Virus record (IMG/VR): IMGVR_UViG_3300023278_001490
Span: 1 to 35,837 of that record
Reading direction: 5' to 3' (one strand)
Length of the DNA: 35,837 nucleotides
DNA from: a virus
This document shows, piece by piece, positions 1 through 16,298 of the stretch. The position numbers were made by a program, and so were the translations under genes. A model generated the notes under the pieces. That model did no database searches. It saw only the letters and a program-made list of their open reading frames with translations, and was not told the origin of the DNA. Every line of letters begins with the position of its first letter. The stretch's first letter is position 1.

Positions 1-3000
1 GCATATGTTCACAATTTTGAAGGGCCTTTACTTACAGGTAAAGCTAAAAATAGATTAAGAGGCTTTCCTTTTATAGTATTAGACGAAGCTTCTATGACTG
101 ATGATAAAGATATAGATACTTTAGTAGTAGCTGCTGGTAAGGTGGGGGCTAAAGTAATTTTTGTAGGAGATAGTTTACAAATTCCTAAAGTAGATAGATT
201 TAATCCTAAAATTAAAAAAGTATCTAAAGCTTTTACAAGCTTCCCAATAGTAAATTTAAGTGAAGTATATAGAACTAGTGATGATGACATATTAGAAATG
301 ATGGGAAAAATTAGATCTCAAAATTCTTTTAAAGAAATCTCTATAAAAGAGAATACAAATAAGCTACAATTTGTAACAGACATTGATTTTAAAGATGAAT
401 TTGCTAGAGACTTAAATAATAATCCAGAAGAAACACTGTTTATAGGCTACACAAACGGAAGTGTAGAAACTTTTAATAAATTTGCTAGGAATGTATTAGG
501 AAATGATGGAGAGCCTAAAGTAGGAGAACAAATAATAGGCTATTTAGGATATGCAAATAAACAAATAGAAAAGGGCGATTTAGCAAATGCTATATCTTAT
601 AAAATAGAAGGTATAAAAAAGCTAGAAAACGGGTTAGTTAAATTAAATATTAATAGTAAATTATTATCAGATTTAAATAAAAAAGGAGTAGTCCTTACAG
701 CAAATCCACAAATTGAATATGCTCAATTAAGTTCTTCTGATACTTTAGATTTTGAACTATCTAAAGAACAATTAGAAAAAAACAACCAATTAATATCAAA
801 TATATTTGCAGAAGTACATGCTCTTAATTTAGAGTATAAAAAAAGAGGAAATAGTTTTTATGGTACTTATAAAGACGCTATTAGAAATGTTACTGAACCT
901 CTATCTATATATAACTTAGGAAATGATTATATATATAATCCATCTACAGGTAAAATGGAGGCATATAATAAAAAATCTCCTTCTCTCAAGCACAAAAACT
1001 TAAATGAAAATCTATCAGTACAAAAAGGAGTAGACTTTGGATATGCTGTTACTATACATAAGAGCCAAGGAATGACTATTCCTAATGTTTATTTTGATGT
1101 AAATACTTTAAAAACTGTATCAGATACTAAAATAATAAATAACAGTAAACAAATTAGTACTGAAAAGAATTCTTTATACTATGTTGCCATGTCTAGAGCT
1201 TCTGAGAAATTAGTTGTAGCCAGCAATATAGCTGTTAAAAAAGCAGAAATAAACCCAGGTGAAAACATAGAAAACTACATAGATGGAGAAGCTCCTTGGA
1301 ATAATGAGCCGCCTAAACGTATGGACGAAGCTCCACCAATAAGTGAAGATGATTTATTGGGAGGTGCAGAATTAAATGTAGGGCCTAATGATGATTTTGA
1401 TGATATGCCGATGAGAGGTTCAAATGCTGTTTCTGATTCTGAGTATTATAATACTATTAGAGCAATTTCTGACCAACATTTATTACAAAAAAAGAAGTAC
1501 TGGATGAATGGTAGACAATATCAGAAAGCTAGAATTTACGGTGCAGAGAAAGGAAGGGCTATTTCCAGAGAAATTCAAACAGCGTATCCTTGGGTAGGTG
1601 TTCATATTAATCCTATAGAGGGAGGTAAAGTAAGACTAGCTCTTTATGATAACAGACCTACTAAAACAGATTTAAAACAGAATAATAACGAAGATGCTCC
1701 TATGAGCATGACTGAAAGAATAGAAAAAGCGGAAGGAGCAGGAAAATCTGCTTCCCAAATTACTGTTGATTATCTAAAAGGAAGAATAAATGTAATAAAT
1801 TCAGCAATCTCTAACTTTAAAAATGATCCTAGAAAAGTGCATATACTGCAACAAAGAAAAGAAGCAATAGAAGCTGATATAGACTCTGCGCTAGAAGATG
1901 AGACTACTGGAAATTTAGTACGTATTGCAGAAAAAGAATTAAGTATTGCTAGACAAATATTTAACCAAAGCAAACTAGGAGATACTGACTATGAGTATAT
2001 TGCTAATAGTTTAATTCAAGTTAGAAGTGTTGTAGAATTTTGGAACAGTATTACTCTATTCAATGATGAACAATTAGCAGGTTCTGTACTAAATTTAGAA
2101 TCAACAAAAGGAGGTCCTAAAGTAGAAACTAAAATATATAGTCCAAATGTACAACGTATGAACGAAGTTATGAAAGAAGTAACTCGTTTAACTAAAGGAT
2201 CTACTGCTTTAATGAGAGACAATATGTTTAAGGCTATGTTAAATACTAAAGGTATTAACTTAGCAACTACTAAATCTTCTTCAGATTTAGAACAATTTGT
2301 AGACATTGGCTGGATGCGTTCTAGAACAATGTCTTTAAACAGACAAGACAATGAGTTACTACAAGTAATATCTAAATGGACAAAAGACGCTACTGCTAGA
2401 AGTAATGATGAAGCTAAGATTGTATTTAGTAATTTAGAGAGTTTAACTAAAAATGTACAAAAAACATCTGAATTTAAATCCGATGGATGGGACTTATTTG
2501 CACAAGTAAATAAAGATGGAGATAAAACAGGTGATTTAGTATCTAGATTTTCACAAGACTATTACGATGAAAGACGTAAAAAAATGAGGTATGCTCAAAA
2601 AGTAAATACCCCTAAAGCTTGGGATAATTTCTATAAATGGAAAAAAGAAAATGAAATTATTTTTGATGTAAGAAAACTATTCTATGAAGACGGTGATGGT
2701 AAATTTACTGAAGCAGATAAAGAGGCTCATATTGCAGAACTAAAAGAGCATTTAGGAGAAGTAGGATTTAATGGTGCGTTTACTACTGTAAATAGAAAAT
2801 ATCAAGATTATAAAAACCTAGAAGAAGCTGCTTACATAGAAATAGAAAGTAGAGGAGAAGATGCGGGAACTACTGACGCAATGAAACTACTTTGGAGAAA
2901 GAAAAACTCTCCTCTTATTTATGCAGAAGTAATGATTGATGGTGCTAAGAGTTTAATGGACAACAAGTTTGTTAGGTCTGAAGGATATAAATACACTTAT

Positions 3001-5157
3001 AATGCACCTAGAAGAACTACTTCTAAAGGAGAGAGTACTGGATGGTATGATGCAAAGTTTGAAACTATTGAAAATAATGAAGCATTGTCTGAATTCTATG
3101 AATTCTTTACTGAAATAACTTCTCAAATGGTAAGTTTCTTGCCACACCAGTTCAAACAAGATGTACAAGTAAATACTTTACCAGAGCTTAGAAGAACTTT
3201 AATAGAAAAGATATATTCACAAAAAAATCTTAAAGCAGGATTTAATGGTATTTCTGATGCTATTAAAGAATCTATTTCTACTAGAGTAATAAGTGATACT
3301 GCAAATCAAGATGTTAATCCTGCAACAGGACAATTAAATCCTAGTTCTCCTGTAACTATGTTACAAGGAAATCTAAATGTAGATGAAAAGTCTTATGAAT
3401 TAGATAAAGTGCTTAAAGCGTTTGCTACTATGGCCATTTCATTTAAGCATAAATCTAGAGTAGAAAACTTACTTAGAAATGCTGAAACTATTGTTGCAGA
3501 TGCAACAGAAATAACGGAAACTGCTGATGGACAATTGCTTAAAAAGAAAGGAGGAGATGTGCTTAGAGGTAAAAACGCTCTTTCTAATACTAAAGCTCTA
3601 TTAAAGTACGGTATTGAAAGTTTCTACGGTCTTAGAAAACCTGAATCTGGAGTATCTAAAACAAAAGTATATACAGTAGAAGAAAATAAAACTTTAAAGA
3701 AAGCTAATGAAGAAATAACTGCAGTTACTGAAAAACTTTCTAATGAAGAAATAACACAAGAAGAGTTTGATGAAAGTATTTTAGAAATAGAAGAAAAATA
3801 TAATTTGAAAGCTTTGGGTATGAATTTAACAGGTTCAAAAATTGTAAAACACTTTAGTAAGTACGTTCAACTTAAGGGTATGGGTTGGAATGTTGTGTCT
3901 GCCACCACTAATTTACTATTTGGAGTTTTATCTAATATGAACCATGCAAGCGGAAAAAGGGACTTCTCTATGAAACAAATGAGAAGAGCCTTTTCCGTTA
4001 TGCTTCATACTTCTGCTACTATGATGTCAGGAGGTTATGCTAGTAGTAAAACTGCTACTAAAGTGCGTAACTTAATGATGAAATTTGATGTACTTAAAGA
4101 GTTTAATGAGGAAGCTAGTCAGAATGTTAAAAATGCTAACTCTAATAAAAAAGGTCTTAAGAAATTATTGCCTTATGAACTACAAAAAAGTTCTGAATAT
4201 TTTGGACAAGGACAAGTAATGGTTGCTTATATGATGGCTACTGGTTTAGACGGTAAAAAACTTACTAAGCAAGAAATTAAAGATAACAAACCTAATTTAT
4301 GGGAGGCTTATGATGAAAATGCTGTTTTTAAAGAAGAGCACTCTGGAAATGTAGAATGGGAAGGAAATATAGATAATTTAGAACATAATCAAGCTAAGTA
4401 TTCTTTCCAAACTAAATTAGACCAAATACTTGAAAGCATACACGGTAACTACAATCCTACATCGCCTATTTTAGCTAAAAAGACTGTTTGGGGACAATTA
4501 CTATTTCAATATAGAAGTTGGATGCCAGAAGGAATTATGTCTAGATTTGAAAGTAAAACTTATGACACTATTCTAGAAAGAGAAAGAAAAGGTAGATATA
4601 CTACTTACTTTACTCTTGGATTTAAAGATTCTATGTCTGTAATGCTTAAGCAAATTGCAATGCAAGGAGATAAAGCTTTTGAAGGAGAGTTTAAAGGACA
4701 GGGAGAAGGAGGTAAAGCGGGGCCTATGTCTGATATAGACAAAGAAAACATGCGTAGAAATCTGTTTGGTATGGCGAGTATGGCGGCTTTAGCGGGGCTA
4801 GGACTTGCACTAAAAGCCTTAGCTGGAGATGATGATGATGAAGACAAAGAAATTACAAATTATTTACTTAATCAAATATACAGATTAGAAACAGATTTAA
4901 CTTTCTATACTAAAGTAGATTCTTTTGAAGCACTATTACAAAACCCAATACCTGCTTTTGGGGTTATTGGTGATGGAGCAAATCTTCTTGGAACTACGTT
5001 TGATTATATACTAGGAGAAGAAGATATAATTAAACACGGTCCAATGGCTGGAGAAAGTAGATTATGGAGAAATGCACTAAAAGTAACGCCTTTTGAAAAT
5101 CTTACTCTAAAATTAAAAATGAATCTAGAGGAAAATATGGAAGAAAAGCATGGATAA
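1..5157 (+). CDS. Giant protein with SF1 (RecD/Dda-like) helicase module, 5' end outside window
   Basis: The reading frame is open from base 1, so this is the 3' part of a larger gene; 1718 residues are visible. The first 400 residues carry SF1 helicase signatures: motif II as LDEAS (residues 27-31), a VGDSLQIP motif III, TIHKSQGMT (about nt 1051-1080) and YVAMSRA (about nt 1180-1200). The Walker A motif must lie upstream of the window. The remaining roughly 1300 residues are charged, mostly helical-looking and match no family I know. Near the C terminus (about nt 4765-4830) there is an Ala/Gly/Leu-rich hydrophobic segment followed by a run of Asp residues. It sits at the end of the + strand block, just before a terminator. 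I infer a virion-associated, possibly ejected protein that acts on DNA or nucleoprotein. The helicase call is firm; the virion role is inference. Confidence 0.8.
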   Translation, partial: AYVHNFEGPLLTGKAKNRLRGFPFIVLDEASMTDDKDIDTLVVAAGKVGAKVIFVGDSLQIPKVDRFNPKIKKVSKAFTSFPIVNLSEVYRTSDDDILEMMGKIRSQNSFKEISIKENTNKLQFVTDIDFKDEFARDLNNNPEETLFIGYTNGSVETFNKFARNVLGNDGEPKVGEQIIGYLGYANKQIEKGDLANAISYKIEGIKKLENGLVKLNINSKLLSDLNKKGVVLTANPQIEYAQLSSSDTLDFELSKEQLEKNNQLISNIFAEVHALNLEYKKRGNSFYGTYKDAIRNVTEPLSIYNLGNDYIYNPSTGKMEAYNKKSPSLKHKNLNENLSVQKGVDFGYAVTIHKSQGMTIPNVYFDVNTLKTVSDTKIINNSKQISTEKNSLYYVAMSRASEKLVVASNIAVKKAEINPGENIENYIDGEAPWNNEPPKRMDEAPPISEDDLLGGAELNVGPNDDFDDMPMRGSNAVSDSEYYNTIRAISDQHLLQKKKYWMNGRQYQKARIYGAEKGRAISREIQTAYPWVGVHINPIEGGKVRLALYDNRPTKTDLKQNNNEDAPMSMTERIEKAEGAGKSASQITVDYLKGRINVINSAISNFKNDPRKVHILQQRKEAIEADIDSALEDETTGNLVRIAEKELSIARQIFNQSKLGDTDYEYIANSLIQVRSVVEFWNSITLFNDEQLAGSVLNLESTKGGPKVETKIYSPNVQRMNEVMKEVTRLTKGSTALMRDNMFKAMLNTKGINLATTKSSSDLEQFVDIGWMRSRTMSLNRQDNELLQVISKWTKDATARSNDEAKIVFSNLESLTKNVQKTSEFKSDGWDLFAQVNKDGDKTGDLVSRFSQDYYDERRKKMRYAQKVNTPKAWDNFYKWKKENEIIFDVRKLFYEDGDGKFTEADKEAHIAELKEHLGEVGFNGAFTTVNRKYQDYKNLEEAAYIEIESRGEDAGTTDAMKLLWRKKNSPLIYAEVMIDGAKSLMDNKFVRSEGYKYTYNAPRRTTSKGESTGWYDAKFETIENNEALSEFYEFFTEITSQMVSFLPHQFKQDVQVNTLPELRRTLIEKIYSQKNLKAGFNGISDAIKESISTRVISDTANQDVNPATGQLNPSSPVTMLQGNLNVDEKSYELDKVLKAFATMAISFKHKSRVENLLRNAETIVADATEITETADGQLLKKKGGDVLRGKNALSNTKALLKYGIESFYGLRKPESGVSKTKVYTVEENKTLKKANEEITAVTEKLSNEEITQEEFDESILEIEEKYNLKALGMNLTGSKIVKHFSKYVQLKGMGWNVVSATTNLLFGVLSNMNHASGKRDFSMKQMRRAFSVMLHTSATMMSGGYASSKTATKVRNLMMKFDVLKEFNEEASQNVKNANSNKKGLKKLLPYELQKSSEYFGQGQVMVAYMMATGLDGKKLTKQEIKDNKPNLWEAYDENAVFKEEHSGNVEWEGNIDNLEHNQAKYSFQTKLDQILESIHGNYNPTSPILAKKTVWGQLLFQYRSWMPEGIMSRFESKTYDTILERERKGRYTTYFTLGFKDSMSVMLKQIAMQGDKAFEGEFKGQGEGGKAGPMSDIDKENMRRNLFGMASMAALAGLGLALKALAGDDDDEDKEITNYLLNQIYRLETDLTFYTKVDSFEALLQNPIPAFGVIGDGANLLGTTFDYILGEEDIIKHGPMAGESRLWRNALKVTPFENLTLKLKMNLEENMEEKHG

Positions 5158-8340: not shown

Positions 8341-9312
8341 TTATTTAAATAAATCCAATTCTACTACTCCATTATTTTTATGAACTTCTGCTGGATATTC
8401 CCAAGCATTAGTGTCATTATAATAAGCTAAATCTGCTAACAGGTCTTCTACTCCCTTAATGTAATATCCTGAAGAAGACTCCCCTCCTACTATAGCTTTA
8501 GTGGTCTCTTCTTGAGACATTCTAAATATTAGAGGCGGGTTATAACTAGCCATCTCTGCTACTATAAACTCAAAGTCCTCTACTTCATAGTCAGGGTAAT
8601 GTTCTTTACCCCAATCCACTAGCCCTAGTCTGAATAAAGCTCCTTGTAGATAATACTTATAAGTACGATAACTAGTTCTAAAAGAGAATACTGATTTACC
8701 AGTAGTCTTCAAATCTAAACCTTTTATCTTCTTATTTTGATGGTCTACAGTAACTACATCTAACTTAACTTTACAGGCAGTGCCTTCATAGTCAAAATAA
8801 TGTATAAATTGATACATTATCTCATCATATTCTACATTAGAAGCAGTATCTGCAAAATAAGTTTTAGTATATTGGTTAGTCTTTAATTGATTAACTACTC
8901 CTTGTACCTGTTGGTAATCATCAAAACTAAGTACTGTCTTACCTTCAGAAGCTTTCATTGCGTCATAGTAAGGCTTACCTACTTCTTCCCACTTATCCAT
9001 ACTAACTGCTTTCTTATAGCCAGAAGCTATAAAAGCAAGTGCATGGTCATCATTTTCCAACATAGACATAACGTATGCAAGCATACCTTCTGTAGAAGGC
9101 TTGCTATCTGTCATAATATAAAACATATCATGAAAGTTATCTGGTTCTGTAAGTAATATATCTACTGCAGACCCTTTGGAAAGAAAATCCCCAGTAGGCT
9201 TAGACTTATTAATGTAAGCTTGTGGACCATCCGCAAGTCTAGAAAGTGCAGAATAGCTAATTGCGTCTTTTGTAATATACTCTTGTGCTGGTGTAATTTG
9301 TTCATCTGTCAT
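8341..9312 (-). CDS. PD-(D/E)XK nuclease (RecB/YqaJ/Cas4-like exonuclease)
   Basis: 323 aa. The core is in residues 160-235: TACKVKLDVVTVD supplies the PD-like Asp, KGLDLKTT gives the D-x-K catalytic pair, and after a short helix RTYKYYLQGALFRLG matches the Q/Y-rich motif of the RecB/YqaJ family. The N-terminal part with AISYSALSRLADGP and LSKGSAVDILL is typical of phage exonucleases in this family. It probably resects DNA ends for phage recombination, working with the RecA-like ATPase and SSB-like protein encoded nearby. It starts after the terminator that closes the ubiquitin-like cassette. Confidence 0.8.
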   Translation of the reverse strand: MTDEQITPAQEYITKDAISYSALSRLADGPQAYINKSKPTGDFLSKGSAVDILLTEPDNFHDMFYIMTDSKPSTEGMLAYVMSMLENDDHALAFIASGYKKAVSMDKWEEVGKPYYDAMKASEGKTVLSFDDYQQVQGVVNQLKTNQYTKTYFADTASNVEYDEIMYQFIHYFDYEGTACKVKLDVVTVDHQNKKIKGLDLKTTGKSVFSFRTSYRTYKYYLQGALFRLGLVDWGKEHYPDYEVEDFEFIVAEMASYNPPLIFRMSQEETTKAIVGGESSSGYYIKGVEDLLADLAYYNDTNAWEYPAEVHKNNGVVELDLFK

Positions 9313-9372: not shown

Positions 9373-9717
9373 CTACTCTGCTAACCATTCTGGTGAAGGG
9401 TCTTCTTCTTCTACTTTGATAAGCTCCTCTACAACAGTATCTTCTGCTGTTACTTCTTCAATAGAATCTTCTAGATCTACTTGCAAAGACTCATCTTCAT
9501 CCACGATAATAAATACAGGAACTTGAGCTACTTTAGTTTTCTTGCCTTTAAGCTTTTCATTCTTAAATAGTAAAGAAACTTGTGTTTTATTCAAGTCATA
9601 CATTTCTCCTATAGAACTACCTTCTCCTAAGTAATTCTTGTCTCCTGCGTTTCTTGTGAAACCTTTTTCTAGTGCATCTAATACTGCACTAATTGTAATT
9701 TTTACTGGTTCTTTCAT
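9373..9717 (-). CDS. Putative HTH-like protein with acidic tail
   Basis: 114 aa. Residues 1-60 look like a small helix-turn-helix unit: VLDALEKGFTR, a spacer, IGEMYDLNKTQVSLLF, then KLKGKK. The last 45 residues are very acidic. It is the final gene of the E2-JAMM-E1-330aa run, 18 nt after it and before a terminator. It could be a DNA-binding regulator or a target of the modification system. The HTH call is by eye and needs a profile search. Confidence 0.45.
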   Translation of the reverse strand: MKEPVKITISAVLDALEKGFTRNAGDKNYLGEGSSIGEMYDLNKTQVSLLFKNEKLKGKKTKVAQVPVFIIVDEDESLQVDLEDSIEEVTAEDTVVEELIKVEEEDPSPEWLAE

Positions 9718-9735
9718 TTTTTTTTATTTATTTGT

Positions 9736-10728
9736 TTATTGTTCTATACATTCTAATGCTTCTATTGAAGCTTTTCTTAAAAACTCTTCATATCCTTTAA
9801 TATCCTTAAATTTAGGCAAGGAATAATTAAGTAACATTTCATTAAAGTTAGGTTTAGTAATTATTTTAACTCCTGCTTTTTGCAACGGAGTTTTTATAAA
9901 TTTCCTATACTTAGGCCTTAATCCTCTGTGAATACTTCCTGCTATATCAAAATCATCTTTTACCCATAGTTCTACATAATCTGTAAATACATAATCATCT
10001 ATTACTTGAGAGGCTTTAAAATAAGGCAAGTTTTTTCTTTTAGCAACCATACAAACTAAAGGAATAGTTTCTCCTGTAATCATATTATAATGTGCTATAT
10101 AATATTTACCTATTACATACTTAAATAAAGAATTTCTAGTTTTGAATACACAAAACTTATCATTATTACTTAATGTATGAAAAGAAGTCATAGCCTTGTC
10201 ATAAGTATTTATACTACCGTAAATTCCTATAACATTATCTAATAAACAATTATTAATATTCTTATCTACTATATCAATATCTAAATTAATCTTATCCTTA
10301 ATAACTAAATAAGATAATAAAATATAAAATTGTTCTTTAGTGATTTTAGTAAATAATTCTAATATTTGATTTTTAGCGTAATCTCTTGAGTAATAATAAT
10401 GATTAACTAAATCACAGTTTTTTGATAATATTCTATATATTGCTGCTACAACTATTTCTTTAAGTAATTTAGGATAAATACTATCTTCTCTTAAAAAATC
10501 TATTATTTCTTCTTTTATTCCTATTTCTTCAAAAGCCTGAATAATTTGTCGTTTTATGTTAGAATTAACACTAACATTATTACAAATTATTTTAGGTATA
10601 CTACATATAGGTATAAATTCAGAGCTATCAGATATAATCTTAGTACTACTTGCCATAGAAGCGGACATACCATAAGGATTCCAAGTAGACGCCCTTAAAT
10701 CAATTATATTTTCTCCTTCTACTATCAT
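9736..10728 (-). CDS. Unknown 330-aa partner of the phage ubiquitin-like cassette
   Basis: No recognised domain. Its ATG overlaps the stop of the E1-like gene (ATGA), so the two are translationally coupled and probably made in fixed ratio. It is Ile/Asn/Tyr-rich and helical in the first two thirds (residues 60-170), then has a more mixed segment with YYIAHYNMITGETIPLVCMVAKRK (shown in parts: YYIAHYNM about 204-211, LVCMVAKRK about 219-227) and a basic patch RGLRPKYRKFIK. No signal peptide or clear transmembrane segment. Base composition is more AT-rich than the E1 gene. Candidate roles are substrate, E3-like adaptor or accessory subunit; none can be chosen from sequence. Confidence 0.65.
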   Translation of the reverse strand: MIVEGENIIDLRASTWNPYGMSASMASSTKIISDSSEFIPICSIPKIICNNVSVNSNIKRQIIQAFEEIGIKEEIIDFLREDSIYPKLLKEIVVAAIYRILSKNCDLVNHYYYSRDYAKNQILELFTKITKEQFYILLSYLVIKDKINLDIDIVDKNINNCLLDNVIGIYGSINTYDKAMTSFHTLSNNDKFCVFKTRNSLFKYVIGKYYIAHYNMITGETIPLVCMVAKRKNLPYFKASQVIDDYVFTDYVELWVKDDFDIAGSIHRGLRPKYRKFIKTPLQKAGVKIITKPNFNEMLLNYSLPKFKDIKGYEEFLRKASIEALECIEQ

Positions 10729-11414
10729 AATTTCACATCTTGTGTTATTGTGGGAAGTTCAAACAATGTTCTAAAAGGTACTTCTCTAAACTCCATTTTG
10801 GCTTTTACATTAGTAATATAATTATTAAATATTGATGTCATATATCCTGCTGTCATTGCTCCACAATGGCTAGTAGCCTTCATTGAGCACGCAACATCTT
10901 CTACTTCATTATCATCAAATAACTCCTCTTCATATCTATCTTCATCTCCCTTACGTACTGCAAATATTTGAGCACTCTCTGCTAACATTCTACCGTCAAT
11001 AAATATTTCTCTATTAGTCTGTTCTTTCCACTTGTTAAACATTAATTTACGTGCTTTCATATTATCAAAAGCAGAAAACATAATGGGATTAGCGTAGCTA
11101 TCTTCTGTAAACCATCCCATTTTATATACTTCTGTAGTACTAGAGAATTTTTTAATTAAGTCTACCGTAGCTTCTTCTTTGCTCATTCCTATATATTCAT
11201 GTCCATATAATTGACCTCCTAAATTAGTAGTGTCTACTATGTCTGAATCATGTATATAAATTTTACATTCTTGTCTGCCTAAATAAAAAGCTAACCAACT
11301 TCCGATACCTCCTGCCCCTCCTATGAGTACAGGTATACCAGGATGAAACCACTCAATGTCAGAAAATCTGACACTGGTGGCTTTACCTTTTAATTGTTCT
11401 AATTGTTCTTCCAT
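10725..11414 (-). CDS. ThiF/E1-like adenylyltransferase of phage ubiquitin-like system
   Basis: 229 aa, a compact single Rossmann domain as in prokaryotic E1-like proteins. The nucleotide loop is GGAGGIGS (32-39) and HDSDIVDTTNLGGQ (55-68) is the ribose-binding Asp region followed by the N-L-x-x-Q motif. The usual Arg of NLxRQ is Gly here. SAFDN (114-118) holds the Asp expected near the metal and ATP. C176 in ACSMKATSHCGAMTAG is the best candidate for the E1 catalytic cysteine; C184 follows. There is no CxxC zinc pair. It would adenylate the C terminus of a beta-grasp protein and pass it to a Cys. It starts 1 nt after the JAMM stop and overlaps the 330-aa gene. Confidence 0.85.
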   Translation of the reverse strand: MEEQLEQLKGKATSVRFSDIEWFHPGIPVLIGGAGGIGSWLAFYLGRQECKIYIHDSDIVDTTNLGGQLYGHEYIGMSKEEATVDLIKKFSSTTEVYKMGWFTEDSYANPIMFSAFDNMKARKLMFNKWKEQTNREIFIDGRMLAESAQIFAVRKGDEDRYEEELFDDNEVEDVACSMKATSHCGAMTAGYMTSIFNNYITNVKAKMEFREVPFRTLFELPTITQDVKL

Positions 11415-11415
11415 A

Positions 11416-12534
11416 TTAAATTACCATTTCATATTGTTCTATTTGTTCTGACAACTTATCTGCTAATACATGTGTACCTCCGTATTTGTATAATTCTTCT
11501 AATACAGCTTCCATATTATCTTCAAATCTTTCCATAGTAAAATCAGTAAAAGCTTGTTGATACCAATGATTAAAATTCTCATCTAAGTTGCTAATAAATT
11601 CATCTTTTTGAAAATCATCAGCAGCATTCCATGCTAAATCTGCTTCCATCATTTTACTAGGAATATATCCCATAGAACTACTACCAGCAGATAATACTAA
11701 TAAGACAAATTCTTTAGCAGAATCGCTTACGTCCATTATGTCTTCTGGCGTAAGGTCTAATGAAGTTTGTCCGTACATATCATACCCTCTACCTTGATAT
11801 AAACTTCTAGCGTTGCTCCAACTATTACTCCAATTAGTTTTTTGTTTAACTGGTTCTGCTTTCTTTCTAACTTCAGCTCTATCAGCAATTTTCATTACTT
11901 CTCCCATAAAACCAGAATCCTCTTGTTTATCATAAACAACATCTAAATCAATAGCGTATACTATATCTTGTTCTTGTTTAACTGAATAAGTACTAACAGA
12001 ATCATCGCCTAGTATATTCTGATACTTTATACCAGAATTGCCTACTAGTTCTTTTTTAGCCATAACGCATAACCTAGCTACATAATCTCCTTTAAAATTA
12101 ACAATTAAAGAAAGGTAATAAGCGTGATGCTCTGTATTATCTCTTAACTCTTGGTCATCTGTCCCACTAAAATATGCTCTCATATTATGATGAGTGTGCA
12201 TATGCCCCATTCTCCAGCCTTCTTCCATTATCTGCGGATAATAGTCATGCATGTCAAATGTTTCTTCTGGCTCAAACTCATATTCTGTATACCCAGCTGT
12301 ACCTATATTCATAGGATACATAGCATGTGCCTCTATCTCTAATTCTTTAGGTGTATTAATGTCTCCATTTTTTATACTAAACAATACAGGTCCTGACCAT
12401 TCTTTAGCTCCGACATAATTATGTAATGTATTAATTTGAGTAATTAATCTACTGTTTAACACTAATTTACCGTTATCTTTTCCTAAGATAATAGGGTAAT
12501 TTGCACTTTTTTCTACTTCTTTAACTTTTTTCAT
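11416..12534 (-). CDS. JAMM/JAB metallopeptidase of phage ubiquitin-like system
   Basis: 372 aa. The complete JAMM metal site is visible: E45 in KEWSGPVLF, then H113-T-H115, seven residues, S123, two residues, D126. This is the deubiquitinase-like fold that cleaves isopeptide or C-terminal peptide bonds of ubiquitin-like proteins. Residues 200-372 form an extra, acidic and helical domain with no recognised family, possibly for substrate binding. The ATG overlaps the E2-like stop (ATGA) and the E1-like gene follows after 1 nt. Expected roles are maturation of the UBL precursor and removal of UBL from targets. Since the UBL is followed by a SAP-like domain, the peptidase may be needed to expose a Gly end. 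Confidence 0.9.
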   Translation of the reverse strand: MKKVKEVEKSANYPIILGKDNGKLVLNSRLITQINTLHNYVGAKEWSGPVLFSIKNGDINTPKELEIEAHAMYPMNIGTAGYTEYEFEPEETFDMHDYYPQIMEEGWRMGHMHTHHNMRAYFSGTDDQELRDNTEHHAYYLSLIVNFKGDYVARLCVMAKKELVGNSGIKYQNILGDDSVSTYSVKQEQDIVYAIDLDVVYDKQEDSGFMGEVMKIADRAEVRKKAEPVKQKTNWSNSWSNARSLYQGRGYDMYGQTSLDLTPEDIMDVSDSAKEFVLLVLSAGSSSMGYIPSKMMEADLAWNAADDFQKDEFISNLDENFNHWYQQAFTDFTMERFEDNMEAVLEELYKYGGTHVLADKLSEQIEQYEMVI

Positions 12535-13985
12535 TTTCCGTATTTTTTAATAAAATAATGATTAATATGTGCTTCTAACTTAGTAGCAAAATAATTTGTA
12601 ATATCTGGATGTACAATTTCTTCAGCATTAAGTATTTCTTTTTCCTCTACATCATAGTCTAATATATATGTAGGAAAAGACTTTTCTCTAAATATAAAAT
12701 CATTTCCATATTCTCCTTCTAATTCTGAGTTTAATAATATGTTATTATACTCTTCTATCTCTCTTAATATGTTTTCTAAGTTTTCTTTACTATTATAAAT
12801 ATATTTACCATCTCCAGTTTTTTGAATTTTTTCTGATATTGGCATTTTAGTTAATTTAGCTTCTAAATCTTCTTTATTTACAATAAATTTATTCTTGTCT
12901 TTATCAAAAGAAACCTTAAAATCTTCAAATAACTTTATATTATCTTTATATCTTCTCTCTACTGTTCTTGGACGAATAATAGTACTTCCTTCATGAGAAT
13001 AAATATTTTCCATCCTAATATGTGGGCCACCTCCTAAAGATTCCCAACTAGCATAAGCTTCTATTTGGTACATAAATAACTCAAACTGTATAATATTAAA
13101 AGGATCTCCTGCAGGACTATCTCTGTCTATTTTCCAATCTCTTTGTATAGAAGCTATTTCAGAACTACCTAAACAAAACTGTTTCCATCCACAAATATCA
13201 ATAATATTTTCACTCTGAAGACTGGAAGAAGGCAAATGAGAATGTCTATATCCTGTTCTATACTCAGAATAAGTTACTGCTCCCCTTCTGCCATGTATAC
13301 TTTCTGTTAAAACTAATTTCTCATTAAACTTTAGTCTAATAAATAAATCATAAAGAATTCTTTTACCTCCTTTACTATTTCTAATAGTAACTTCTGGAAA
13401 TCTTAGAATTAAAGACATATTGTATTTAAAATTTTCAAAATCTTCTTGTATATCCCAATTATCTCCAAATATTTCAGTAAGAGACTTTTTAATATCTAAT
13501 AAATTCTTTTTATTAGATTTTACAGTTTCTTTTATTTTTACTAAATCTTCTTCAAGCTCTTTATCTTTATTTTTTGTATAAAGCTCTATTTCATTTGGAA
13601 ATGCATGTTTAATATCACTAACACTAACATATCTATTAGAAATTCCATATAAAGAATCAATATGCATTAATTGAACAAGATCATTTTCATCATCTGTACT
13701 GATACCACTAACTATTTTTAATACTTCTCCATTTGGATAATGAGTAGTATCAGAACCTTCTAGCATAATAACATAATCATTACTATGAAAAATATAAAGA
13801 CTTTCATCTTCTATAGCTCCTTCAGGCTCAAGCTCTTCTAATTCTTGCTGTATTTCTATTTCTAACTGTTCTTCCTCTTCTTGTTGGTCTTCCTCACTTA
13901 TGGTAGCAACTCCGTCTAATTCTTCTAATAGTCTTGCAGCGTCTTCTTCTAGCATTTCCATAGTTATATTTCTTTGTTCACTCAT
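12531..13985 (-). CDS. E2-like (ubiquitin-conjugating fold) protein
   Basis: 484 aa. Residues 1-60 are extremely acidic with long Glu runs. Residues 65-130 look like a small beta-rich domain, and 130-180 a charged helix. Residues 185-280 resemble prokaryotic E2-like (RWD/UBC) domains: RFPEVTIRN, YDLFIRL, HGRRGAVTYSEYRTGYRHSHL (about 231-251, first His-x-His at 248-250), and then FCLGS with the candidate catalytic Cys at 271. An H-x-H before and a Cys after the flap is the arrangement of bacterial E2s in PRTRC-like and related systems. Assignment relies on this motif and on the operon with JAMM and E1 genes. The C-terminal 200 residues are unknown and could recruit a target. Confidence 0.7.
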   Translation of the reverse strand: MSEQRNITMEMLEEDAARLLEELDGVATISEEDQQEEEEQLEIEIQQELEELEPEGAIEDESLYIFHSNDYVIMLEGSDTTHYPNGEVLKIVSGISTDDENDLVQLMHIDSLYGISNRYVSVSDIKHAFPNEIELYTKNKDKELEEDLVKIKETVKSNKKNLLDIKKSLTEIFGDNWDIQEDFENFKYNMSLILRFPEVTIRNSKGGKRILYDLFIRLKFNEKLVLTESIHGRRGAVTYSEYRTGYRHSHLPSSSLQSENIIDICGWKQFCLGSSEIASIQRDWKIDRDSPAGDPFNIIQFELFMYQIEAYASWESLGGGPHIRMENIYSHEGSTIIRPRTVERRYKDNIKLFEDFKVSFDKDKNKFIVNKEDLEAKLTKMPISEKIQKTGDGKYIYNSKENLENILREIEEYNNILLNSELEGEYGNDFIFREKSFPTYILDYDVEEKEILNAEEIVHPDITNYFATKLEAHINHYFIKKYGK

Positions 13986-13999
13986 ATGTTTAAAGTTTT

Positions 14000-14021
14000 A
14001 AGGGGGAAACTAATCCCCCTT
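14000..14021 (-). terminator. Terminator between UBL and E2-like genes
   Basis: AAGGGGG and CCCCCTT form a 7-bp GC stem with an 8-nt loop, followed on the minus strand by AAAACTTTAAA rather than a long T run. It may be a partial terminator, letting the UBL be made in excess over E2, JAMM and E1. Confidence 0.65.
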
Positions 14022-14027
14022 TATTAA

Positions 14028-14723
14028 TTAATCTTCTAATACCATACCTAATTCTTTAGCAAGGTTTTCAGCATCTTTAGCTAATACATCTATGTCTCTA
14101 GAAATAGCTCCAGAATCTATGTCTTCAAGCAAACTATCAAACATATTTAGAAATTTGTTTCTCATTACTTGTACTACTGAACGTATATTAACATCTTTGT
14201 TAACTACTAAAGACTCTGTACAGTCATCTAGTAATAATGCATCAAAAGGACATGCTGAAATATAATCGTCTTCTAAGATGTTTATAGGATCATTCTCTAT
14301 TCTTATAGTAGTAGGTCTAACATTATTCTTGTTAGTTTTAGGCGCAGTTTCATCAGAACTATTAATACCGTGTCTTTTGTCATAAGCTCTTAGTTTACTC
14401 CGTAAAGAAGAACCATCTCCTGTATTAGAAAGTGATTTTTTTTGACACGCTTTTCTTAGCTTAGCATCTGTTAATCCTGCATAAGCGTCTTCTGTTACAC
14501 CAGACTTAACTTTAGTAGGATAAACATATACTATAAAGTCTCCAGTAGGTAATATTGCTGCAGAACTCTCTAAAGTCATTCTGTTTTCTTTAACCATGCA
14601 TCTAGCACTAGACACCATCATGTCTTCATTGATTAATGCTTTTAATTCTCCCCAAGTAGCTACATTAGTGTTAATTTCTTGAGTTGCTCTTGTTTTGTTA
14701 GAATAAATTGTTACTTTTCTCAT
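14028..14723 (-). CDS. Ubiquitin-like beta-grasp protein fused to SAP-like domain
   Basis: 231 aa from the ATG at 14723; an upstream in-frame ATG at 14765 would overlap the nuclease gene by 22 nt and adds a poor basic extension, so the shorter start is preferred. Residues 1-72 have the beta-grasp pattern: KVTIYS, TWGELKALI helix, RCMVKENRMTL, ILPTGDFIVYVYPTK, ending in KVKSG (71-75). Residues 83-117 look like a SAP DNA-binding helix-extended-helix: GLTDAKLRKACQKKSL, then TGDGSSLRSKLRAYD. The last 100 residues are acidic and unknown. The SG at 74-75 could be a processing point for the JAMM peptidase. It is separated from the E2-JAMM-E1 run by a terminator-like hairpin. UBL call comes from pattern plus context. 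Confidence 0.75.
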   Translation of the reverse strand: MRKVTIYSNKTRATQEINTNVATWGELKALINEDMMVSSARCMVKENRMTLESSAAILPTGDFIVYVYPTKVKSGVTEDAYAGLTDAKLRKACQKKSLSNTGDGSSLRSKLRAYDKRHGINSSDETAPKTNKNNVRPTTIRIENDPINILEDDYISACPFDALLLDDCTESLVVNKDVNIRSVVQVMRNKFLNMFDSLLEDIDSGAISRDIDVLAKDAENLAKELGMVLED

Positions 14724-14743
14724 AATTGTTTTTTTAAATTGAT

Positions 14744-15316
14744 TTATTGATTGTTTTTTAACCATTCTTTAATGGTTGTAATTTTATACTTTAATTTAGT
14801 ATCTCCCATTTTAATATTTCTATTGGGGATATCTCTTTTATACACTTCAGTGTCTATTACTTTTTGAGGAGTAAACGTACTCTCAAATAACTTATCTGGC
14901 ACTATTTTATTTGTGTATATACCGTAGTCTTTATATAACCACTTTTGCTTTAAAGGAAAAGTATACTGAGTACTATTAGTACGGCCAGCAAACATGCCTT
15001 TCACATCTACGTATGCTTTTTTACCTTTAATGACTACAAATGTTGGAAATAAATCAGGTTGCCCCCACACTCCTCTTTTTGGTGAAAATGTTATAACAAA
15101 ATCTGGAGTATAAGTACAAGGCTTCAATAGAGATTTAGTTTTATTCTCTACTTTAGTCTTGGTTTTTAACTCTGTAATTTTGGTATATGAAAATACTACA
15201 TCTTCTGAAAGAGTAAATGTTTCCTGTTCATAGGTATAACTCTTAATAATCTTATGCTTTATTAATTCATCTAAGTAATATGAAAAGTATAATTCTTCAT
15301 TATTTTTATACTTCAT
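14744..15316 (-). CDS. PD-(D/E)XK endonuclease (Holliday-junction/T7 endo I-like)
   Basis: 190 aa. A helix with E7/E8 at the N terminus, YTPDFVITF (about 68-76) with the PD Asp, and AYVDVKGMF (about 100-108) with the D-x-K pair form a PD-(D/E)XK site. FPLKQKWLYKDYGIYTNKIVP resembles the helix-strand that follows in DUF1064-like and phage junction resolvases. It probably processes branched DNA during replication or packaging. It overlaps the primase gene by 11 nt, so they are co-translated. Confidence 0.7.
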   Translation of the reverse strand: MKYKNNEELYFSYYLDELIKHKIIKSYTYEQETFTLSEDVVFSYTKITELKTKTKVENKTKSLLKPCTYTPDFVITFSPKRGVWGQPDLFPTFVVIKGKKAYVDVKGMFAGRTNSTQYTFPLKQKWLYKDYGIYTNKIVPDKLFESTFTPQKVIDTEVYKRDIPNRNIKMGDTKLKYKITTIKEWLKNNQ

Positions 15317-16298
15317 TTAATTTTTGTTTGATTAACATCTTTAGCTTATCCTCTCCGTGTTCCTCTCTATAATCTGATATATCTTTAGACTCTCCTATTG
15401 GATTATGTACATAAGGTAATTCATAGATTAAGCTATGTTGAGACCCTGCCTCTAAACCTGCTTTATCATTGTCATACCATATAATAATCCTATCCCATCT
15501 CTCTTTTAAGTACTTAACAGCTCCTTCTGGTAACTGTGTACTTTCACTTTGTGGAGCAACTGCATATAAACCTATACTTCGTAATGTCATAACATCTTTA
15601 TTGGATTTGGTTATAATTAATAACTTACCTTTTTCAGGCAACTGTTTAAATCCTTGTACTATGTTTGAATTACAGTTAGTGAACCATTTAAATTCACTAT
15701 CTAGTTTAAGTATTTTATATTTATAGTTCCCAAAATGGTAACTAAATGCTAATTTTTTGTTTTTAATAGTGAAATAACTTTCTTGCATATAATATGCTTG
15801 AAGCTGCTTAACTTCATATAGCTTAAGTATTTCTTCAGTAATACCGTATTGTTTCCAATAACGTAATCCTGCGTCAGTATAAGGCTTAGACACTATCCTT
15901 AACTTAACGTCTGATATTTGTGGCTGAACTTTTTGCTTCTCTCCAGTATGTCCCATTGTTTCTTTAACAACATTACCTATACATAATTTTAAATTAAAAT
16001 CATTAGACACTAGTATTAATGCCTGATAATATTTTAATCCATATTTATGTTGTACGTATTTTATAGGGCCATAAACTTCTCCATTAGAAAAATCCTTATA
16101 TATAGCATTATTATTTCCAAGTATTTTAATGCTACAAGAGGGTTTTCTATCTTTTCTAAGTTCTGAACAAAAAGTCTTGCCAGGAGATAAATAAGAAGAG
16201 ATATAGTATTTAAAAATATCATGTGCTGATATTCTATTTAATATATCTGACTTTTTTAATTCTCCAGCAGCAATGTGGCCTTCTGTTTTAAATTTCAT
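15306..16298 (-). CDS. DnaG-type phage DNA primase with TOPRIM domain
   Basis: 330 aa. The N-terminal part has FCSELRKDRKPSCSI, IYKDFSNGEVYGPIKYV and YYQAL, a pattern of small phage primases related to DnaG. The TOPRIM core is LLIITKSNKDVMTL (about 228-241) and IIIWYDNDKAGLEAG (about 271-285). The D-N-D metal motif is intact, but the usual acidic Glu of the first TOPRIM motif is replaced: ITKS instead of ITEG. There is no canonical Cys4 zinc finger. It should lay primers for the family A polymerase, together with the replicative helicase encoded upstream. Confidence 0.8.
   Translation of the reverse strand: MKFKTEGHIAAGELKKSDILNRISAHDIFKYYISSYLSPGKTFCSELRKDRKPSCSIKILGNNNAIYKDFSNGEVYGPIKYVQHKYGLKYYQALILVSNDFNLKLCIGNVVKETMGHTGEKQKVQPQISDVKLRIVSKPYTDAGLRYWKQYGITEEILKLYEVKQLQAYYMQESYFTIKNKKLAFSYHFGNYKYKILKLDSEFKWFTNCNSNIVQGFKQLPEKGKLLIITKSNKDVMTLRSIGLYAVAPQSESTQLPEGAVKYLKERWDRIIIWYDNDKAGLEAGSQHSLIYELPYVHNPIGESKDISDYREEHGEDKLKMLIKQKLNEV

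What the first reader, a model, noticed from the sequence alone, without database searches (positions are those of the whole stretch)
9373..14723. Complete phage-encoded ubiquitin-like conjugation pathway
A beta-grasp UBL, an E2-like protein, a JAMM peptidase with intact E45/H113/H115/S123/D126, and a ThiF/E1-like enzyme lie together on the minus strand of a phage genome. E2-JAMM-E1 and the 330-aa gene overlap by 4 nt or are 1 nt apart. Seen directly: the motifs and the spacing. Known: prokaryotic UBL/E1/E2/JAB cassettes such as PRTRC and Bil/CBASS-type operons exist, and some modify phage virion or cGAS-like proteins. Inference: the phage modifies a host or own protein with this UBL, for example to disarm host defence, tag a replication factor or alter virion proteins.
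Basis: partly seen in the sequence, partly recalled or inferred. Interest (0 to 1): 0.88.

Follow-up and report, generated by a model that had tools for sequence, protein, structure and literature searches.

The report
Phage-encoded ubiquitin-like protein tagging cassette
A group of crAss-like and related phages carries its own complete ubiquitin-like tagging machinery (tag, activating enzyme, transfer enzyme and trimming protease) next to its DNA-replication genes, in the same place where sister phages carry a known anti-defence gene pair, which suggests it may be an unrecognised way for viruses to disarm bacteria.

Summary
On the minus strand at 9736-14765 lie, in order, a beta-grasp UBL, an E2-like protein, a JAMM peptidase, a ThiF/E1 enzyme and a fifth gene X, beside the DNA primase. 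The same order recurs in about 90 phage loci, including Steigviridae (Crassvirales) and Flavobacterium phages. E2 Cys271 and His250 are kept in 80/80 sequences, E1 Cys176 in every intact family member, and the JAMM residues in 83-84 of 84 unsplit copies. The UBL model superposes on ubiquitin with its conserved Ser-Gly at ubiquitin's C-terminal glycines. Every UBL carries residues beyond that Gly: seven natural short forms stop exactly one codon later, long forms add a helical tail. This implies a pro-UBL that JAMM must trim.

Unexpectedly, the cassette and a T4 rIIAB-like pair exclude each other in the same slot after the primase (0 of 112 cassette loci have rIIAB; 32 of 39 cassette-less loci do; about 5 switches on the primase tree). 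rIIAB is an anti-defence module, so I propose the cassette is a counter-defence stand-in that tags a target. Conjugation itself, the target and the rIIAB equivalence are inferred. It is not a PRTRC, Bil or CBASS member; the E2 and UBL match no curated family.

The parts
14028..14765 (-). pro-UBL: beta-grasp (residues 1-73 of the 231-aa form starting at 14723), conserved Ser74-Gly75, then a SAP/HeH-like helical domain and C-terminal helices
   Evidence: AF2 pLDDT about 96 over 1-70, disorder at 74-77; Z 8.3 to 1ubq, 69 residues, rmsd 2.3; G75 in 78 of 81 relatives
12531..13985 (-). E2-like conjugating protein, 484 aa; H248-S-H250 ... C271-x-G273
   Evidence: AF2 core about 145-320 resembles UEV/UBC folds (Z 6.0 Tsg101, 5.0 Ubc13 and UbcH7); H250, C271, G273, G319 in 80/80
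11416..12534 (-). JAMM/JAB metallopeptidase, 372 aa; E45, H113, H115, S123, D126
   Evidence: Prok-JAB E 2.5e-5; motif kept in 83-84 intact copies; weak matches to CSN5 and archaeal JAMM1
10725..11414 (-). ThiF/E1-like adenylating enzyme, 229 aa; G33-x-G-G-I, D56, D58, K79, D117-N118, C176
   Evidence: Pfam ThiF E 6e-13; profile to UBA5 7.5e-13, MccB, ThiF, Cap2; C176 in all intact family members
9736..10728 (-). gene X, fifth gene of the unit, 330 aa, unknown fold, fastest-diverging member; candidate adaptor or target-recognition protein (inferred)
   Evidence: an ORF directly follows E1 in 85 of 91 loci; lowest identity of all genes
9373..9717 (-). small acidic protein, 114 aa, 18 nt after X; membership of the cassette not shown
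   Evidence: no reliable match
15306..16298 (-). DNA primase (TOPRIM), upstream neighbour in nearly all relatives
   Evidence: phrog_12622 E 5e-40; synteny
14744..15316 (-). 190-aa protein between primase and UBL, possibly a nuclease
   Evidence: weak match to Holliday junction resolvases E 0.03
8341..9312 (-). exonuclease VIII-like protein, downstream neighbour
   Evidence: phrog_412 E 3e-25

Best explanation
This is a self-contained ubiquitin-like conjugation pathway owned by phages. Proposed working: the UBL is made as a precursor; the JAMM peptidase cuts after the Ser-Gly at the end of the beta-grasp and so exposes a C-terminal Gly (inferred); the E1 adenylates that Gly and takes it as a thioester on Cys176; it passes to Cys271 of the E2; the E2, perhaps guided by the fast-evolving gene X, attaches it to a target protein; JAMM can also remove it. 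The UBL's C-terminal SAP/HeH-like domain and the position in the replication block suggest that this happens near phage DNA. Biological role, my best guess: counter-defence expressed with the replication genes, doing in these phages the job that the rIIAB pair does in their sister phages. Shown: genes, folds (UBL firmly, E2 moderately), conserved catalytic residues, all-or-none co-occurrence, co-inheritance with the primase, and exclusion with rIIAB in the same slot. Inferred: thioester chemistry, conjugates, target and role. Confidence: conjugation pathway about 0.85; pro-UBL trimmed by JAMM about 0.8; rIIAB-like counter-defence role about 0.4. The single figure below is for the pathway with its maturation step, not for the role.
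For: Four genes all-or-none: of 76 primase loci with enough DNA downstream, 36 have all four, 1 has three, 39 none. Order fixed in about 90 loci. Catalytic residues near-invariant over divergent relatives. UBL fold equals ubiquitin down to its tail: model 2-74 aligned to Ub 1-76. E2 model in the UBC/UEV class. E1 profile nearest UBA5, MccB, ThiF and Cap2; hhalign to PRTRC ThiF 98%, E 1.5e-13. No UBL ends at the Gly; L015 KSGK*, L016 KSGF*, L020 KSGE*, L021 KSGI*, L041 AAGI*, L046 KSGK*, L078 KAGN* stop one residue after it, as a precursor would; precedent: BilC trims BilA (PMC11354881). A jumbo-phage relative with a ThiF, an HPH...CLG protein and a small protein ending SGG* has no detectable Prok-JAB in its genome, which fits JAMM being needed only where the Gly is masked. 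Co-inheritance: 27 of 33 supported E1 splits are also in the primase tree, Mantel r 0.80. Exclusion with rIIAB: 0 of 112 against 32 of 39; Fisher p 6e-15 on primase-sampled loci; about 5 switches on the tree; whole records agree. rIIAB counters RexAB in diverse phages (PMC11879866).
Against: No conjugate has been seen. Foldseek alone gave no significant PDB match for the E2 model (best E 0.55), and the VIA Z values of 5-6 are in the range that can mean only a common arrangement. The E2 has HSH/HPH upstream of the Cys instead of HPN. E1 lacks the usual Arg of the N-x-x-R-Q motif (G67 in 76 of 84). Three UBLs (L084, L088, L091) have Ala where the Gly is expected. The rIIAB exclusion could reflect a module-exchange hotspot and shared ancestry: contigs overlap between scans, and after dereplication there are about 5 changes. 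Seven cassette-less loci have neither module. RexAB is a lambda/E. coli system; I know of no Rex-like target in Bacteroidota hosts.
Confidence: 0.8

Rival explanations
1. The conjugation target is the phage's own replication apparatus (for example primase, helicase, polymerase or an annealing protein), a SUMO/PCNA-like regulation of replication or recombination, not counter-defence.
For: Cassette sits between primase and exonuclease and co-evolves with the primase; UBL tail looks like a SAP/HeH nucleic-acid-binding domain; T4 rII genes are also linked to replication and membranes (own knowledge).
Against: Sister phages with close primases do without the cassette, so the replisome does not need it; exclusion with an anti-defence module.
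Confidence: 0.35
2. The cassette counters host UBL-based immunity (Bil, type II CBASS): the phage UBL, E1, E2 or JAMM act as decoys or as deconjugating enzymes against host Cap2/Cap3 or Bil pathways.
For: E1 has weak similarity to CBASS E1-E2 profiles and, in crAss001, BilD; such systems are anti-phage (PMC10097602, seen by title and abstract only).
Against: A decoy would not need four intact catalytic proteins inherited all-or-none; E2 and UBL do not resemble CBASS/Bil profiles.
Confidence: 0.15
3. It is a sulfur-carrier pathway (ThiS/MoaD/Urm1-like) delivering sulfur, with the JAMM releasing the carrier.
For: E1 is a minimal ThiF-type enzyme; some bacterial UBL-JAB-E1 operons are sulfur assimilation operons (PMC1779556).
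Against: A dedicated E2-like protein with an invariant Cys is always present; no rhodanese, cysteine desulfurase or cofactor enzyme was recognised among the neighbouring genes examined; mature tail is SG rather than GG.
Confidence: 0.08
4. The exclusion with rIIAB carries no functional meaning: the slot is a recombination hotspot in which unrelated modules are swapped.
For: Seven cassette-less loci hold neither module; homing endonucleases and group I introns are frequent there; only about 5 switches on the tree.
Against: Never both and seldom neither, also over whole records, which a neutral hotspot would not predict.
Confidence: 0.4

Closest known systems
PRTRC plasmid systems (Iyer 2006 class 6d; TIGR03735-03738 etc.)
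   Same: UBL, JAB, E1 and E2-like genes in one operon on mobile elements; E1 and, more weakly, JAMM related by profile; E2 shares a local C-x-G motif with PRTRC-B; PRTRC-C often ends in Lys-Gly
   Different: E2 and UBL profiles do not match; no ParB, PRTRC-E or PRTRC-F recognised in the cassette; gene order differs; phage replication block, not plasmid
Bil (BilABCD) anti-phage system
   Same: Four-part UBL, E2, JAMM, E1 set; JAMM trims the UBL precursor (PMC11354881)
   Different: Bacterial defence; BilA has two UBL domains and BilB a C-E-H-H motif; here one UBL with a helical tail, and H-S-H before the Cys; no PADLOC Bil match except a weak one for the crAss001 E1
Type II CBASS Cap2/Cap3
   Same: E1, E2 and JAB chemistry; Cap2 E1 domain detected at E about 1e-6
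   Different: E1 and E2 are separate proteins here; no cGAS-like nucleotidyltransferase recognised in the cassette
Lambda/T1 tail assembly TAPI-TAPK (Ub-like + JAB)
   Same: Phage-borne UBL with a C-terminal extension and a JAB peptidase predicted to cut at its Gly (PMC1779556)
   Different: No E1 or E2; tail-assembly locus, not replication locus
T4-type rIIA/rIIB module
   Same: Occupies the same genomic slot in sister phages
   Different: Unrelated proteins (GHKL ATPase and RIIB); mutually exclusive with the cassette

Membership tests
Ubiquitin-like conjugation pathway (general) | beta-grasp UBL with conserved C-terminal Gly | tested here: met
   the Gly is internal until trimmed
Ubiquitin-like conjugation pathway (general) | E1-like adenylation domain with nucleotide-binding motif and Cys | tested here: met
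Ubiquitin-like conjugation pathway (general) | E2 with UBC fold and catalytic Cys | tested here: inconclusive
   Cys271 80/80; UBC-class matches only Z 5-6
Ubiquitin-like conjugation pathway (general) | covalent UBL-target conjugates | not testable with these tools
   needs biochemistry
PRTRC system | E1 related to PRTRC ThiF | tested here: inconclusive
   hhalign 98%, E 1.5e-13, but NCBIfam PRTRC_ThiF 27.7 bits against cut-off 144.75: related superfamily, not a member
PRTRC system | PRTRC-A (JAB), PRTRC-B (E2) and PRTRC-C (UBL) orthologues | tested here: not met
   PRTRC_A 18.7 bits against cut-off 101.8, no PRTRC_B or PRTRC_C match; hhalign none for B and C
PRTRC system | ParB-family gene, PRTRC-E and PRTRC-F in the cluster | tested here: not met
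   no such gene at the locus; X does not match PRTRC-F; PRTRC-E not compared by profile-profile alignment
Bil system | BilA, BilB, BilC and BilD profiles | tested here: not met
   PADLOC: only a weak BilD hit, for the crAss001 E1 and not the window's
Type II CBASS | CD-NTase plus fused E1-E2 (Cap2) | tested here: not met
   separate E1 and E2; no CD-NTase among the cassette genes scanned
rIIAB module | RIIA (GHKL ATPase) and RIIB proteins | tested here: not met
   absent from cassette loci and RIIA absent from 20 whole records
ThiS/MoaD sulfur carrier pathway | UBL ending in Gly-Gly with E1 but without E2 | tested here: not met
   tail is Ser-Gly plus extension, E2 present

The most novel reading that the evidence does not exclude
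Lytic phages use their own ubiquitin-like conjugation pathway as a counter-defence (or membrane/replication protection) module that is interchangeable with rIIAB: covalent protein tagging used by a virus against bacterial immunity, the mirror image of Bil and CBASS, in abundant gut and environmental phages.
Probability: 0.38. Interest if true: 0.94.

Novelty: new variant of a known kind. Interest (0 to 1): 0.87.

Why it matters
Known bacterial ubiquitin-like cassettes are mostly defences or plasmid genes of unknown use. Here the attackers own a complete set with new E2 and UBL families, also in isolated and culturable phages (crAss001, DAC15, Fpv1), so it can be tested now. The either/or relation to rIIAB gives a direct hypothesis for the cassette and, in reverse, a handle on what rIIAB does, a question open since the 1950s. 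The natural one-residue pro-UBL forms give a ready substrate test for the JAMM enzyme.

Tried and rejected
Single-protein scan of viral contigs with the E1: no hit; worked only with an alignment. Plasmid search with E1: none. Bacterial genomes: 2 hits, one on a 3.7-kb MAG contig, so not a common prophage or host system. Primase alignment of 19 was too divergent to scan; two narrower ones were used. Foldseek PDB search of the whole 484-aa E2 model: nothing significant; BFVD gave crAss-like relatives of unknown function and three unnamed weaker entries. PRTRC-F against X: none. Idea that the three loci with Ala-type UBLs had lost E2: rejected, their E2 genes are present but too diverged for the profile (HPH...CLG). 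Idea that the cassette is universal in the clade: rejected. Literature in the held library: no paper found that describes a crAss-like ubiquitin pathway; most subscription papers and all preprints are not held, so a prior report cannot be excluded. A conserved C-terminal S-x-x-E-I-x-x-[LM]-F motif in Steigviridae UBLs recalled beta-clamp motifs; not tested.
Full report
WHAT IS THERE. The window is a 35.8-kb virus record. On the minus strand, after a TOPRIM primase (15306-16298) and a 190-aa protein (14744-15316), come UBL (14028-14765), E2-like (12531-13985), JAMM (11416-12534), ThiF/E1 (10725-11414) and gene X (9736-10728); then a small acidic protein (9373-9717) and an ExoVIII-like nuclease (8341-9312). 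Other genes (DnaB-type helicase, PolA-type polymerase, Sak4 annealing protein, Dda-like helicase) make this the replication part of a phage genome.

WHO HAS IT. tblastn of the E1 finds 78 phage records, mostly Flavobacterium psychrophilum phages (41.7% identity) and Bacteroides/crAss-like phages of the Steigviridae, plus a few jumbo phages. crAss001 gp80-gp75 is primase-UBL-E2-JAMM-ThiF-X, and the same order is seen in Fpv1 and eight others. An alignment-based scan of viral contigs found 181 relatives; in the best 80 plus the annotated ones and the window, UBL was found in 89, E2 in 88, JAMM in 91 and E1 in 92 loci, in fixed order. Three apparent E2 losses are diverged E2 genes, and L078's missed UBL is present. 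In 84,980 bacterial genomes only two relatives were found, one on a 3.7-kb MAG contig, and none in plasmids: this is a phage lineage, not a common host or prophage system.

PROTEINS. Conservation over 80-88 relatives: E2 H250, C271, G273, G319 80/80; E1 G33, D58, N64, K79, D117, R122, R142 in all aligned members and C176 in all intact family members; JAMM E45, H113, S123, D126 84 and H115 83 (exceptions nearly all in ORFs cut by group I introns, or endonuclease genes). AlphaFold of the UBL from 59 relatives: ubiquitin fold over 1-73 with pLDDT about 96 and disorder at Ser74-Gly75; it superposes on ubiquitin at Z 8.3, 69 residues, rmsd 2.3 A, residues 2-74 on Ub 1-76. AlphaFold of the E2: long helix, four-strand sheet, HSH, Cys, helices in 133-312; best structural neighbours include the Tsg101 UEV (Z 6.0), Ubc13 (5.0) and UbcH7 (5.0), mixed with other folds; this is moderate, not firm, support. 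E1: profile matches UBA5, MccB, TcdA, ThiF, MoeB and Cap2. It lacks the usual Arg of the N-x-x-R-Q motif, which PRTRC ThiF keeps. JAMM: CSN5 and archaeal JAMM1 weakly.

A PRO-UBL. Nearly all UBLs have the Gly (78/81), and in none is it the last residue. Long forms, like the window's, have a linker, a SAP/HeH-like domain and further helices. Seven short forms end exactly one residue after the Gly (L015, L016, L020, L021, L041, L046, L078), three others end 2-5 residues after it. In cr106_1 an HNH gene separates the beta-grasp (ending KSGKF) from its helical domain. The simplest reading is a precursor trimmed by JAMM; BilC does this for BilA (PMC11354881). A jumbo Xanthomonas phage (L012) has a ThiF, a protein with HPH...CLG and a 141-aa protein ending ASGG, and no detectable Prok-JAB in its genome: where the Gly is already free, no JAMM is seen.

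A FUNCTIONAL UNIT. Scanning with primases instead of E1, 76 loci had enough downstream DNA: 36 have all four genes, 1 three, 39 none. E1 and JAMM trees agree with the primase tree (27 of 33 supported E1 splits also in the primase tree; Mantel r 0.80). A fifth ORF starts within about 25 nt of the E1 stop in 85 of 91 loci and is the fastest-diverging gene: a candidate for target recognition. The window's X is clearly related by sequence only to those of L014 and L092, so homology of all the fifth genes is not shown.

THE rIIAB EXCLUSION. In cassette-less sister phages the slot after primase or UDG holds a GHKL ATPase and a partner that match RIIA and RIIB lysis-inhibitor families. Of 112 cassette loci none has RIIA or RIIB; of 39 cassette-less loci 32 have both and 7 neither (Fisher p 6e-15 on the 76 primase-sampled loci). 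Some contigs recur between scans; after dereplication 81 against 25 loci need about 5 changes on the primase tree, 22.6 expected for shuffled labels. Over whole records: 20 cassette genomes without RIIA; of 8 others, 7 with RIIA and without E1, 1 the reverse. rIIAB lets T4, N4 and other phages escape RexAB and is dispensable otherwise (PMC11879866; PMC8594841). Two modules that replace each other and never coexist may serve one need. That is an inference, and a recombination hotspot is a serious rival.

MEMBERSHIP. E1 and JAMM share ancestry with PRTRC relatives, but E2 and UBL do not match PRTRC-B and PRTRC-C, curated cut-offs are far from reached, and ParB/E/F partners were not seen. Bil and CBASS profiles are not met. 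It works like these systems; it is not shown to be one of them. Short annotations in public records ('thiamine biosynthesis protein', 'metalloprotease domain', 'E1 enzyme family protein') show that single genes were noticed; no description of the pathway was found in the held papers, which do not cover the whole literature.

VERDICT. A real, conserved, phage-owned ubiquitin-like conjugation cassette with a precursor tag (about 0.85 for conjugation), most likely tagging a protein for counter-defence (about 0.4), with replication control as main rival (about 0.35).

Noticed in passing
L240 10741-14296, L217, L130, L183, L117 and other loci: T4 rIIA/rIIB-like pairs in related phages sit in the slot of the UBL cassette; used in the main argument.
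   Followed up: yes
L012 (Xanthomonas phage PhiXhv-15) 5742-9621: Jumbo phage with a second, apparently JAMM-free variant: 141-aa protein ending ASGG, 892-aa protein with HPH...CLG and Cys-rich ends, ThiF; Erwinia phage Ep032 and other Xanthomonas phages have the ThiF too.
   Followed up: partly
L029 6684-7137, L072 5486-5732: Group I introns interrupt the JAMM gene; in Fpv1 (L003) an endonuclease gene on the other strand splits it within the HxH motif.
   Followed up: partly
L005 3731-4934: HNH endonuclease gene separates the UBL beta-grasp from its C-terminal helical domain right after KSG.
   Followed up: partly
L002, L005 and other Steigviridae E1 genes: E1 proteins of Steigviridae carry an N-terminal extension of up to about 150 residues of unknown nature, absent in the window.
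   Followed up: no
C-termini of Steigviridae UBLs (L002-L009): Conserved ending S-x-x-E-I-x-x-[LM]-F, reminiscent of sliding-clamp binding motifs.
   Followed up: no
window 94-5157: 1687-aa plus-strand protein whose first 400 residues match a Dda-like helicase; the rest is unassigned.
   Followed up: no
L113, L115, L116, L159, L171, L182, L186: Seven cassette-less primase loci with neither UBL cassette nor rIIA; what fills the slot was not examined.
   Followed up: partly
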